Shown here piece after piece: positions 25,705 to 31,225 of a DNA stretch of 64,000 nucleotides. Positions within the stretch are counted from its first letter, which is position 1, and every line of letters starts with the position of its first letter. The DNA lies in the NCBI GenBank assembly GCA_024653355.1, contig JANLFQ010000001.1:186001-250000 (forward strand), in the 5' to 3' direction. The translations under genes and the position numbers were made by a program. This DNA is from a candidate division WOR-3 bacterium (GTDB lineage: Bacteria > Hydrothermota > Tepidihabitantia > Tepidihabitantales > Tepidihabitantaceae). The notes below the pieces were generated by a model. The model was given only the letters and a program-made list of their open reading frames with translations, ran no database searches and was not told where the DNA came from.

Positions 25705-27834
25705 ATGCTATTGGCATTGGCGCTTGTTATAATTAGTAACGGCAGCGGCTGGCAGACATTTACTCACCCTGATTACATCTTTGATATCTGGGGCGACGAT
25801 TCGACGGTTAATCTCGCTACTGCCGGTGGCGTGGTGGTGTTAGAGACAAGAGCCGAACCCCCTATATTGAAGCGCCGGTTTGTTCACACCGATGGTCTGG
25901 GGGTAAATCGTTGTCTTGCCATTGCCAAGGACGATGCCGGTAACCTCTGGGTTGGGACCGATGGGGCAGGGCTGGTGGTGATTCCGCTCGACTCGAGCCG
26001 GGCAGTTTCATATCGAACCGCAGAACTGCCGGTAAGAGTTAGGACGGTCTTTGTTCAAGGTAATAGAGTTTTGCTGGGGTCGGATGACGGGCTTTTTGTC
26101 ATTGATACTAAAGGTACGCCCCTTGATTTCAATGACGATGCTATCCGCCATTTTCGGGTTAGTGCGGTGCGGGAGTTGCTGAGCGACCAGGTGCGGGCGC
26201 TTTTTGCCTTTAATGGGAAATACTGGATTGGTACCAATCGTGGGCTGACCAGTGTTGATACCGGCTTAAGCAACTGGCGTGCCTATCCGCGACCGCTGGG
26301 CGATTCGGTGCTGGCATTCGGTGTTTTTCCGGATGGCAGTTTAGTACTGGGAACGGAAAGGGGGGTTGCGCGCGGTGATACCAGCGGGTTTACTCCCCTT
26401 GTTGAATTTCCTCTGGCGCGGGCGGTAACCGACATCGCAGTTTATGGCTGGGATGTTTATCTGGCAGCGGGTGATACTCTGTTCAAAGTGGATTCTGCAG
26501 GAGGCAGGATATCGGTTCTGGTCAGCAAGCCAAGGGCATTGTGGATTGGCGATAAGTTGTGGGTTGGCCTTGGTGGTTCTGAGGATGCGGGCTGGGGGTT
26601 GTTGTATCAAAACAGCGGTGCCTCATGGCAGGGTGTTTATCTTGGTGGTCTTGCTGCCGGGTTTATCAGCGACTGTACATTCGCTAAGGACGGCAGCGTG
26701 TACCTCGGGCACAATTCGAGCTGGTTTTCCCGGATTCTACCCGACGGAGGAATTCAGATTATGAATTCGCCTCTGCCCTGGGTGGTGCAAATTCGGTGCG
26801 ACCGTCAGGGTCGGTTGTGGTTTTCTCACTTTTCTTATCAGGGTGGAGTTAGTGTTTACGACCCGGTGGCAGATACTTGGGGGGTTGTGCAGTGGGGTAG
26901 TTCCAGTGCCCGTAATGTCATCCAGGCATTCGGAATTGACCGACAGGATACGAAATGGGTTTACAATATGGGAGGACTGGTTGTGGCGATTGACTCAACC
27001 GGTCGCCAGCAGGAGTTCAGTTTACCGGAGTTAACACCACCGCCGGACGGCTCTTACGAGTTTGCCTTTGACTCCCGCAATCGAGTATGGCTTGGTCTTA
27101 CCAACGGGCTGGAAGAACTGGATTACAACGGGACGCTCTTTAACCTTGAAGACGATTTTCACACCCTCCATACCACCGGACTACCTTCGCTTCAGGTTCG
27201 TTCTATTGCCGTGGACCATCAGGACCGGGTTTGGGTTGCGACGCCCCAGGGTGGAGCGTTCTGGGACGGCAGGGCGTTTAAGGTTTTCAACAGCGGTAAC
27301 AGTCCGCTACTTTCTAACAACCTTTTCCGGGTGCGGGTTGACGGTGCGGACCGGGTCTGGTTTCTTTCGGACCAGGGGATTTCAATTTTTGACCAGGCAT
27401 CGAGCCGCTGGACCAACTATACACCTCAGAACAGTGGTATGATTCCCAACCCTCAGGGTCTGGCAAACTTTTACACCGCCCTTGACCTTGACGACAATCG
27501 CGGTATAGCCGGCGTGGGTAGCGCCCGGGGCTTTTCGCTTTTCAGTTTTGCCCCGGAGTTAGAGTCGACGCTCGTGGGTTTGAAAATCTACCCCAACCCC
27601 TGTATTCTTGGAGTTCATCAGGGGGTAGTTGTTGAAGGTTTGCCGGCTGATGCGCGGGTTCAAGTATATTCCATTAGCGGTCAGCCCGTAGCACAATTGA
27701 CGACCAGTCCAGGAATGGGAAGAGCGGTTTGGTATCCGCGGCGTGTTGCCAGCGGGCTCTACCTTTTGGTCGCGACGGCAAAGGGTAAGTTTAGAGTAGA
27801 AAAGGTGGCGCTGGTTGTTCCCGGTGGTAATTAG
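25705..27834 (+). CDS. Secreted beta-propeller protein with C-terminal sorting domain
   Basis: A 709-residue exported protein. After a short hydrophobic signal (MLLALALVIISNGSG) it consists of two-component-regulator-type propeller repeats, recognisable by NLWVGTDGAGLVV, YWIGTNRGL, RVWLGLTNGLEEL and DRVWVATPQGGAFWDG. The last 80 residues, beginning GLKIYPNPC and running through VQVYSISGQPVAQL, match the type IX secretion (type A) sorting domain. No sensor kinase or regulator domain is attached, so it is a secreted or surface protein. Its stop is 3 bases from the convergent small gene. Confidence 0.85.
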   Translation: MLLALALVIISNGSGWQTFTHPDYIFDIWGDDSTVNLATAGGVVVLETRAEPPILKRRFVHTDGLGVNRCLAIAKDDAGNLWVGTDGAGLVVIPLDSSRAVSYRTAELPVRVRTVFVQGNRVLLGSDDGLFVIDTKGTPLDFNDDAIRHFRVSAVRELLSDQVRALFAFNGKYWIGTNRGLTSVDTGLSNWRAYPRPLGDSVLAFGVFPDGSLVLGTERGVARGDTSGFTPLVEFPLARAVTDIAVYGWDVYLAAGDTLFKVDSAGGRISVLVSKPRALWIGDKLWVGLGGSEDAGWGLLYQNSGASWQGVYLGGLAAGFISDCTFAKDGSVYLGHNSSWFSRILPDGGIQIMNSPLPWVVQIRCDRQGRLWFSHFSYQGGVSVYDPVADTWGVVQWGSSSARNVIQAFGIDRQDTKWVYNMGGLVVAIDSTGRQQEFSLPELTPPPDGSYEFAFDSRNRVWLGLTNGLEELDYNGTLFNLEDDFHTLHTTGLPSLQVRSIAVDHQDRVWVATPQGGAFWDGRAFKVFNSGNSPLLSNNLFRVRVDGADRVWFLSDQGISIFDQASSRWTNYTPQNSGMIPNPQGLANFYTALDLDDNRGIAGVGSARGFSLFSFAPELESTLVGLKIYPNPCILGVHQGVVVEGLPADARVQVYSISGQPVAQLTTSPGMGRAVWYPRRVASGLYLLVATAKGKFRVEKVALVVPGGN

Positions 27835-27837
27835 AAA

Positions 27838-28005
27838 TTAACCCTTTTGAATTCGGCGGACCGAGGGGCGACGCGACTTGCTGTTTTCTACACCGGAATC
27901 TTCCATACAGGAGTCAAAGTATGGGCACTGAGTGCAGCAGTCGTCGTCGCTTGTTTTGCCTTTATTCCGGCAGATATCATAACCGGGGCAGGCACGACAA
28001 CACAT
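27838..28005 (-). CDS. 55-residue protein with duplicated cysteine motif
   Basis: A small gene directly behind speB: an AAAGGAGG site lies between the speB stop and the ATG at 28005. The 55-residue product has eight cysteines (2, 3, 6, 12, 23, 24, 27, 33) in two copies of one motif, CCRACPGYDIC (2-12) and CCTQCPYFDSC (23-33), consensus C-C-x-x-C-P-x-[YF]-D-x-C, joined by an acidic/basic linker, then a basic Ser/Arg tail. I do not recognise the family. Two matching four-cysteine sites suggest Zn or Fe-S binding. Translational coupling to speB is likely. Confidence 0.75.
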   Translation of the reverse strand: MCCRACPGYDICRNKGKTSDDDCCTQCPYFDSCMEDSGVENSKSRRPSVRRIQKG

Positions 28006-28020
28006 AATGTTTATCCTCCT

Positions 28021-28848
28021 TTACTGAGAGAGCAGCAGGATAAGTTCCCGGATAAGTTCGGCGACAACCGGTGCGGTTGCCGGTACCGCATTACTGCGCG
28101 GGCAGTACTCAACGATATCGGCGCCGATGATGTGCAAACCGGCAAAATTGGCAAGTGCCTGCGCCAGTTCGCGGTAGGAACAACCGCCCGGTTGCGGGGT
28201 TTGGACATCGGGCATTACACTCGGGTCCAGGACATCGATGTCAAGGGTGATGTAAACCGGCTGGTGCGCGATTTTCTTCCGGATTTCCTGGCTGGCATTC
28301 AGAACTTCAAAGGGGAACATATTGGGGAGCGTCATCTCCTCGGGTAATACAAACGAGCGGATTCCCAGTTGGAATAAACGGGTGCGCGGTAGATGGTCTA
28401 AAACGCGCCGCATTGCTGTAGCATGGCAGCAGGGTTCACCTAAAAACTCGTCGCGCAGGTCGGCGTGGGCGTCAAACTGGACGACACACAGGTCGGGATA
28501 GATTTTTATTAGTTCCGATATGATAACCGGTGTGATGGTGTGTTCGCCGCCCACCGCTAACTGAACCTTTTTTTCCTGATAATTTTTTTTCGTGGTGGAC
28601 TTGATGAGTTCGAACGGTGCTTCCGCAGTTTCGTACGTCAGAAAAAGGTCGCCGGCGTCGTAGATTCGGTTCTGTGATAGGTCGCGTTTTTGATAGGGGC
28701 TGAATGTTTCGATATTGGCGGTACCGAGCCTTCCGATTTCTGGACCGAACCTTGTCCCGGGGATAAAGGAACTGGTGCGGTCCAGCGGAATGCCGATGAT
28801 GACCACCTCGGCTTCAGCAAAGTTACAATTGGCAAAGTATGACGCCAT
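28021..28848 (-). CDS. speB: Ureohydrolase, probable agmatinase
   Basis: A 275-residue arginase/agmatinase-family enzyme that releases urea from agmatine or a related guanidino substrate. Binuclear manganese ligands are visible: the His of GGEHTITP, the Asp-His-Asp of FDAHADLRDE, and the Asp pair in ITLDIDVLDPS. The TPQPGG loop is typical. An upstream in-frame ATG at 28890 would overlap the promoter -35 box, so I use the ATG at 28848. Agmatinase against another ureohydrolase cannot be settled from sequence. The 55-aa cysteine protein follows in the same transcript. Confidence 0.88.
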   Translation of the reverse strand: MASYFANCNFAEAEVVIIGIPLDRTSSFIPGTRFGPEIGRLGTANIETFSPYQKRDLSQNRIYDAGDLFLTYETAEAPFELIKSTTKKNYQEKKVQLAVGGEHTITPVIISELIKIYPDLCVVQFDAHADLRDEFLGEPCCHATAMRRVLDHLPRTRLFQLGIRSFVLPEEMTLPNMFPFEVLNASQEIRKKIAHQPVYITLDIDVLDPSVMPDVQTPQPGGCSYRELAQALANFAGLHIIGADIVEYCPRSNAVPATAPVVAELIRELILLLSQ

Positions 28849-28859
28849 AAAGGCACAAT

Positions 28860-28887: not shown

Positions 28888-28916
28888 CAAAACCGTCTTG
28901 CCTGATATGGGAGGAT

Positions 28917-30133: not shown

Positions 30134-31225
30134 GTGGGTAGCAACGATAAGATAACGGTATCGGTAATCAAGGCGGATATCGGCGGTTATGTTGGCCATT
30201 CCGCAAGTCATCCGGACATTATCGCCCGTGCCCAGGAGATGCTTAAAAGTGCCCGAGAAAATGGGCTGTTGATTGACTTTTATGTCACGAGTTGTGGTGA
30301 TGACCTCGAGTTGATTATGACCCATAACCGGGGTAACGACTGTGCCGATGTTCACAAACTGGCTTGGGACACTTTTATGGCGTGCACCCGCCGGGCACAG
30401 GAGTTGAAACTGTACGGTGCCGGCCAGGATATGCTGGCGGATGCATTTTCCGGCAATGTGAAAGGGATGGGTCCGGGTGTTGCCGAGATGAGTTTTGTGG
30501 AGCGCAAATCTGAACCGCTGATTGTATTCTGCGGGGACAAGTGTGCACCCGGTGCCTGGAATCTGCCCCTGTTCAAAATATTCGCCGACCCGTTCAACAC
30601 CATCGGTTTGGTTATTGACCCTTCAATGCACGATGGGTTTGTGTTTGAGGTCCACGATGTGTTTGAGGGCAAGGATATGAAACTCTCCTGCCCGGAGGAG
30701 ATGTACGACCTTCTGGTGTTGATTGGGTCACCGGAGAACTACTGTGTGAAAAATGTTTACCGGAAGGACGGCGAGATTGCCGCCACCAGTTCAACCCAGA
30801 AACTGGCTTTAATTGCGGGAAAGTATGTGGGTAAAGATGACCCGGTGATGATGGTGCGCTGTCAGTCGGGCTTTCCCGCGGTGGGTGAGGTTTTAGAGGC
30901 GTTCGTGTTTCCCCATCTGGTATCGGGCTGGATGCGAGGTTCGCACTATGGTCCTTTGATGCCGGTGGCGCAGCACCAAGCAACGCCGTCAAGGTTTGAC
31001 GGTCCGCCGCGCGTAATCGCCCTTGGTTTTCAACTGGACAATGGCCATCTTGTTGGACCGCGGGATATGTTTGATGACCCGGGTTTTGACCGGGCACGGC
31101 AGGAGGCAAACGAACTGGCAGATTATATGCGGCGGCACGGACCGTTTGAACCGCACCGGCTGGGGTTGAAGGAGATGGAGTATACGACCCTGCCTCAGGT
31201 GTTGAAGAAACTCCTGAAGCGATAA
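30134..31225 (+). CDS. Fructose-1,6-bisphosphate aldolase/phosphatase (archaeal-type)
   Basis: The 363-residue class V enzyme, a bifunctional aldolase/phosphatase that drives gluconeogenesis from triose phosphates. Signature segments are TVSVIKADIGGYVGH at the N-terminus, LELIMTHNRG, KGMGPGVAEM, a tyrosine/lysine pair in AGKYVGKDDPVM and RCQSGFPAVGEVLE. The start is GTG at 30134, read inside ATGTG; the overlapping ATG is out of frame and stops after seven codons. AAAGGAGG precedes it. The enzyme is common in archaea and deep-branching, often thermophilic, bacteria. Confidence 0.93.
   Translation: MGSNDKITVSVIKADIGGYVGHSASHPDIIARAQEMLKSARENGLLIDFYVTSCGDDLELIMTHNRGNDCADVHKLAWDTFMACTRRAQELKLYGAGQDMLADAFSGNVKGMGPGVAEMSFVERKSEPLIVFCGDKCAPGAWNLPLFKIFADPFNTIGLVIDPSMHDGFVFEVHDVFEGKDMKLSCPEEMYDLLVLIGSPENYCVKNVYRKDGEIAATSSTQKLALIAGKYVGKDDPVMMVRCQSGFPAVGEVLEAFVFPHLVSGWMRGSHYGPLMPVAQHQATPSRFDGPPRVIALGFQLDNGHLVGPRDMFDDPGFDRARQEANELADYMRRHGPFEPHRLGLKEMEYTTLPQVLKKLLKR

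What the first reader, a model, noticed from the sequence alone, without database searches (positions are those of the whole stretch)
27838..28005. Unrecognised 55-residue protein with two copies of CCxxCPx[YF]DxC
A small gene hidden behind speB has a strong ribosome site and eight cysteines arranged as two matching blocks (residues 2-12 and 23-33), consensus C-C-x-x-C-P-x-[YF]-D-x-C. Internal duplication of a four-cysteine unit in a 55-residue protein suggests pseudo-symmetric binding of two metal ions or Fe-S clusters. It is coupled to a manganese-dependent ureohydrolase, so it could be a metallochaperone, a sensor or a small partner of that enzyme. It is too short for routine gene callers.
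Basis: partly seen in the sequence, partly recalled or inferred. Interest (0 to 1): 0.65.

Follow-up and report, generated by a model that had tools for sequence, protein, structure and literature searches.

The report
Small eight-cysteine protein beside agmatinase gene
The 55-residue cysteine protein behind the agmatinase gene is a real, conserved gene in a group of uncultured WOR-3 bacteria and belongs to an unnamed family of small, probably metal-binding modules that also occurs, alone or joined to an ATPase, in Omnitrophota, so it is probably not a dedicated agmatinase part.

Summary
ORF 27838-28005 on the minus strand encodes a 55-residue protein with two CC-x2-C-x2-[YF]-x2-C blocks, a strong ribosome site (AAAGGAGG) and a start 15 nt after the speB stop. 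It is a gene: homologues occur in 22 of 28 genomes of its order in candidate phylum WOR-3, all eight cysteines are invariant, and most pairwise dN/dS values are about 0.05-0.45. In all 22 genomes it lies directly 3' of speB. No Pfam or NCBIfam model matches.

The agmatinase-specific reading is weak. SpeB homologues occur without it in 81 other WOR-3 genomes, including four of the same family, three of which keep speB's neighbourhood minus the small gene. Homologues in Omnitrophota lie elsewhere: one type with an acidic tail follows a small exported-looking protein; a third type mostly faces an MFS gene and, in seven genomes, is fused to AAA_22 (ExeA-like) ATPases. In WOR-3 the basic-tailed (A) and acidic-tailed (B) types often stand in tandem behind speB.

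Best reading: a small two-site metal module, Zn2+ more likely than Fe-S, serving as an adaptor whose charged tail helps set its partner. Metal and partner are inferred, not shown.

The parts
27838..28005 (-). Gene of the 55-aa two-block cysteine protein (type A, basic tail)
   Evidence: homologues; purifying selection
27970..28002 (-). Block 1, residues 2-12, CCRACPGYDIC
   Evidence: Cys invariant
27907..27939 (-). Block 2, residues 23-33, CCTQCPYFDSC
   Evidence: Cys invariant
27841..27903 (-). C-terminal tail, residues 35-55, net basic (6 K/R, 3 D/E); type B homologues have an acidic tail
28015..28022 (-). Shine-Dalgarno sequence AAAGGAGG, 9 nt before the ATG, overlapping the speB stop codon
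28021..28851 (-). speB, agmatinase (ATG start at 28851 inferred from homologues; the ORF listing gives a TTG at 28890); motifs GGEHT, DAHAD, DIDVLD intact
   Evidence: TIGR01230 217.6 bits against a cut-off of 174.3; PF00491; motifs
25705..27834 (+). Convergent gene of a 709-aa beta-propeller-like protein with a C-terminal sorting-like region; syntenic neighbour, not part of the operon
   Evidence: the propeller reading is by eye

Best explanation
The gene makes a small cytosolic protein built of two copies of one module, CC-x2-C-x2-[YF]-x2-C: a cysteine knuckle followed by a short helix that carries the fourth Cys. The eight cysteines bind two metal ions, more likely Zn2+ than Fe-S, and give a pseudo-symmetric scaffold. 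The scaffold serves as a binding adaptor; a disordered charged tail (basic in type A, acidic in type B) helps to choose the partner. In this WOR-3 order it is probably co-transcribed with agmatinase and often followed by an acidic-tailed paralogue. It may act together with SpeB or polyamine-related targets, but it is not needed for SpeB to be kept. Shown: gene, conservation, purifying selection, duplication, speB adjacency, paralogues, ATPase fusions. Inferred: metal binding, choice of Zn, adaptor role, co-transcription.
For: Eight Cys invariant over 48 sequences from two phyla while most other positions vary. dN/dS about 0.05-0.45 in most pairs. Tail charge is consistent within each type: A basic in nearly all (one is near neutral), B acidic, in every WOR-3 member examined. 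The module occurs alone and, as type C, at the C-terminus of AAA_22 ATPases, seven fused ORFs seen, as expected of an interaction module (Pfam run on two of them). The A/B profile and the type C profile are related: hhalign probability 93, E 3e-7. AlphaFold2 places a helix after each knuckle (residues 9-15 and 30-38), at low confidence. Among 14 tested small C(P)XCG proteins of Haloferax, nine bound zinc (PMC11241148).
Against: No metal was measured. Models are of low confidence (mean pLDDT 63 and 65), and Foldseek found no credible PDB match. C-x2-C-x5-C also ligates Fe-S clusters in SPASM-type domains (PMC10452713). Adjacent cysteines seldom both bind one zinc ion (own knowledge). No partner is known. 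Five of the 14 tested small C(P)XCG proteins were zinc-free.
Confidence: 0.45

Rival explanations
1. Iron-sulphur protein: each half, or the two halves together, holds a [4Fe-4S] cluster, and the protein is a small electron carrier or an O2/redox sensor.
For: C-x2-C-x5-C is the spacing of SPASM/twitch auxiliary-cluster ligands (PMC10452713). Some Omnitrophota type B genes lie next to a lysine 2,3-aminomutase-like radical SAM gene, and several type C genes next to an ORF read as RnfC, by eye only. The hosts are probably anaerobic (own knowledge).
Against: No ferredoxin, SPASM or other Fe-S model matched. The WOR-3 neighbours and the AAA_22 fusion partner are not redox enzymes. The radical SAM and RnfC links are not constant.
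Confidence: 0.25
2. Agmatinase-specific partner or metallochaperone: the protein delivers metal to SpeB, senses it, or regulates it.
For: Directly 3' of speB in 22 of 22 WOR-3 genomes that have it, same strand, gaps 1-215 nt where measured for the first small gene. The link persists in family f3 although the surrounding block is gone.
Against: SpeB homologues are present without it in 81 WOR-3 genomes, including four of the same family. Omnitrophota homologues are not next to speB in the loci seen. Outside f3 the linkage is part of a larger syntenic block that holds unrelated genes. Agmatinase Mn2+ is bound by O/N ligands, so a thiol-rich chaperone is a poor chemical match (own knowledge).
Confidence: 0.15
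3. Metallothionein-like storage or buffering of Zn, Cu, Cd or Hg.
For: Eight Cys in 33 residues. An ArsR-family regulator gene lies upstream of some Omnitrophota type B genes.
Against: Invariant spacing, conserved aromatic residues and a type-specific charged tail are unlike metallothioneins. AAA_22 fusions do not fit storage. No metal-resistance genes were noticed beside it in WOR-3.
Confidence: 0.08
4. Not a gene: a chance cysteine-rich ORF between two convergent genes.
For: It is short, and the other strand carries an overlapping ORF.
Against: Conserved in 22 genomes, codon-position bias, conserved ribosome sites, invariant cysteines.
Confidence: 0.01

Closest known systems
Small zinc-finger micro-proteins (C(P)XCG proteins of Haloferax volcanii, HVO_2753 type; PMC11241148)
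   Same: Under 70 residues, two cysteine modules, predicted metal sites, mostly unknown partners.
   Different: Those have C(P)XCG motifs; here each module is CC-x2-C-x2-[YF]-x2-C, with no CxCG-type pairs and a charged tail.
DUF2769 (PF10967)
   Same: Two cysteine modules with CxxCP followed by an aromatic residue; the type B protein of L024 gave the only, weak, Pfam lead (E 0.17).
   Different: DUF2769 has C-x-C-x2-C-P-S-[WYF] modules plus FC/YYC and GK elements. Profile comparison finds no relation (hhalign probability 3.7); genuine DUF2769 proteins exist in some of the same genomes as separate proteins.
SPASM/twitch auxiliary Fe-S domains of radical SAM enzymes
   Same: C-x2-C-x5-C ligand spacing (PMC10452713).
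   Different: No radical SAM domain; free-standing 55 aa; an extra Cys before each CxxC; no Pfam or NCBIfam match.
Gal4-type Zn2Cys6 clusters
   Same: Pseudo-symmetric pair of C-x2-C-x6-C halves with a basic flank (own knowledge).
   Different: Spacing is x5, not x6; eight rather than six cysteines; a eukaryotic family; no profile match. Analogy only.

Membership tests
DUF2769 (PF10967) | Score over the Pfam gathering cut-off of 22.8 bits | tested here: not met
   No match for the window protein; best relative 12.9 bits; hhalign probability 3.7
SPASM domain | Match to a SPASM/radical SAM model | tested here: not met
   No such model among Pfam or NCBIfam matches
SPASM domain | C-x2-C-x5-C ligand spacing | tested here: met
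   Each block contains it; motif described in PMC10452713
C(P)XCG zinc-finger micro-proteins | Two C(P)XCG motifs | tested here: not met
   Sequence: no C(P)XCG
C(P)XCG zinc-finger micro-proteins | Binds zinc | not testable with these tools
   Needs purified protein
Family described here (two CC-x2-C-x2-[YF]-x2-C blocks, types A, B and C) | Eight invariant Cys in two blocks; profile match | tested here: met
Agmatinase (the neighbouring gene) | TIGR01230 cut-off and metal motifs | tested here: met
   217.6 bits against 174.3; GGEHT, DAHAD, DIDVLD

The most novel reading that the evidence does not exclude
A new metal module in which each C-x2-C-x5-C half takes its fourth ligand, the first Cys of the CC pair, from the other half. 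This would give a cross-locked two-metal unit that uncultured bacteria use as a general adaptor: free-standing with basic or acidic tails (a charge-matched A/B pair behind speB in WOR-3) and appended to AAA_22 ATPases in Omnitrophota.
Probability: 0.15. Interest if true: 0.6.

Novelty: new variant of a known kind. Interest (0 to 1): 0.42.

Why it matters
It defines an unnamed protein family, absent from Pfam-A and NCBIfam, that spans two candidate phyla and has free-standing, tandem and fused forms. It gives those phyla a clear handle (motif and profile) for annotating small genes, and the fused forms point to partners that can be tested. It also shows that a striking 22-of-22 gene neighbourhood need not mean a shared function.

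Tried and rejected
DUF2769 membership: rejected by profile comparison. Single-block matches elsewhere in the genome: three short ORFs without the second block, taken as chance. A link to the protein-arginine kinase McsB, whose gene precedes speB in two genera (g13, g14): a guanido-kinase domain is nearly universal in the class and lies elsewhere in the other genomes, so this is lineage-specific. Structure: two AlphaFold2 runs of low confidence, Foldseek against PDB empty or meaningless. PDB sequence search with the profile: only chance matches to complex I subunits. Viral contigs: none. Literature: nothing on a cysteine-rich partner of agmatinase or on this family. Searches failed for technical reasons.

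Full report
Observation. The minus-strand ORF 27838-28005 encodes MCCRACPGYDICRNKGKTSDDDCCTQCPYFDSCMEDSGVENSKSRRPSVRRIQKG. AAAGGAGG stands 9 nt before its ATG, and the speB stop lies 15 nt upstream. The gene ends 3 nt from the convergent gene 25705-27834. SpeB passes the NCBIfam agmatinase cut-off (217.6 against 174.3 bits) and keeps its metal motifs. In 2,000,000 shuffles of the 55 residues one block appeared 1,096 times and two blocks never. In the whole genome the block pattern matches five times (reversed control none), and only the two matches in this ORF belong to a conserved protein.

It is a conserved gene. Of the 28 genomes of its order (G000-G027), 22 have it; the other 119 genomes of the phylum that were searched have none at E <= 0.01 (two further weak partial matches fall within genomes already counted). 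Named contigs that carry the same genes are titled candidate division WOR-3. Met1 and all eight cysteines are invariant. Substitutions favour third positions (for example 5/4/16, 0/3/15 and 2/0/8 by codon position), and dN/dS is about 0.05-0.45 in all pairs except one with almost no differences. Ribosome sites are conserved except for type A in family f3, where the gene starts about 1 nt after speB in the genome measured.

Two types in WOR-3. Type A has a tail that is basic in nearly all members (one, L007, is near neutral), type B an acidic one. Families f3, f4 and f5 mostly carry A followed by B; genus g13 has B alone behind speB; f1, to which the window belongs, has A alone.

The link with speB. 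All 22 genomes have the gene directly 3' of speB on the same strand. This looks like strong evidence for a shared function, but the surroundings weaken it. In f1, f4 and f5 a whole block is syntenic, including the convergent propeller-like gene and, in most, sugar-transferase-like genes further on. In f3 that block is gone and speB-A stays, which does favour a link. Against it, a SpeB homologue is present in 103 of 147 WOR-3 genomes, 81 of which lack the small gene. Four of these are in the same family (G003, G007, G008, G012); in G003, G007 and G008 the propeller gene follows speB directly, as if the small gene had been lost cleanly (in G012 the contig ends). So SpeB does not need it to be kept.

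Relatives outside WOR-3. A pattern scan of 84,980 species returned WOR-3 and Omnitrophota, plus unclassified 'uncultured bacterium' records and one record titled Latescibacterota whose contig length equals that of G027 of this order. The Omnitrophota proteins resemble type B, acidic tail included. They usually follow a small gene with a signal-like N-terminus (one gives DUF5666 below cut-off, E 5.8e-5), in some loci with an ArsR-family gene before it and a lysine 2,3-aminomutase-like gene after it. A profile search then revealed type C, NCCExCQxYWTCETKWYRGERGEENxCCPVCNYYxxC, convergent with an MFS gene (read by eye) in most loci shown. With all types in one profile, 102 of 391 genomes related to G386 match at E <= 0.001. 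Types A/B and C are related by hhalign, probability 93 and E 3e-7, with 40 columns aligned. In seven genomes type C is the C-terminus of a 320-360 residue ORF; Pfam finds AAA_22 in both tested, and the sequences look ExeA-like (own reading). One more ORF joins type C to what looks like a membrane segment (L193).

What it probably is. Free-standing, tandem and fused forms with invariant cysteines and variable tails are typical of a small structural module that holds metal and binds a partner (inference). Zn is favoured over Fe-S because neither the WOR-3 neighbours nor the ATPase partner are redox enzymes and because most tested small C(P)XCG proteins of Haloferax bind zinc, though some do not (PMC11241148). 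Fe-S stays open: C-x2-C-x5-C is the ligand spacing of SPASM auxiliary clusters (PMC10452713). The adjacent cysteines suggest that each half may lend one ligand to the other (inference only). AlphaFold2 gives a helix after each knuckle at low confidence; PDB comparisons by fold and by sequence found nothing.

Known families. No Pfam or NCBIfam family matches types A, B or C. DUF2769 was the only lead and failed. I found no paper on it. It is best called an unnamed family of a known broad kind, small cysteine-rich metal-binding modules.

Limits. Genomes are mostly metagenome-assembled; absences in G011 and G018 (82-83% complete, no speB found either) mean little. The wide scan required ATG before the first CC. 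Co-transcription, metal and partner are untested.

Noticed in passing
L128, L186-L191 (Omnitrophota genomes G386, G472, G459, G388, G512, G322, G381): AAA_22 (ExeA-like) ATPases with a C-terminal two-block cysteine module of type C, not described by Pfam.
   Followed up: partly
L086-L090, L093, L095, L097, L105, L106 (Omnitrophota): Type B gene usually follows a small exported-looking protein (EYSYGTV...QIVVxEYD), in some loci with an ArsR-family gene before it and a lysine 2,3-aminomutase-like gene after it.
   Followed up: partly
L193 (G514): Type C module at the start of a 146-residue ORF that seems to carry membrane segments.
   Followed up: no
L016, L022 (G027, G025): A protein-arginine kinase McsB-like gene lies directly upstream of speB in genera g13 and g14 only.
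   Followed up: partly
window 30134-31225 (+): ORF that by eye resembles the bifunctional fructose-1,6-bisphosphate aldolase/phosphatase of thermophiles; no family search was run.
   Followed up: no
L141-L145 (G003, G011, G016, G004, G037): Genuine DUF2769 proteins, some with a lipoprotein-like N-terminus, in scattered WOR-3 genomes.
   Followed up: partly
window 25705-27834 (+): Propeller-like protein with a C-terminal sorting-like region (LKIYPNPC...), syntenic with speB over several families.
   Followed up: partly
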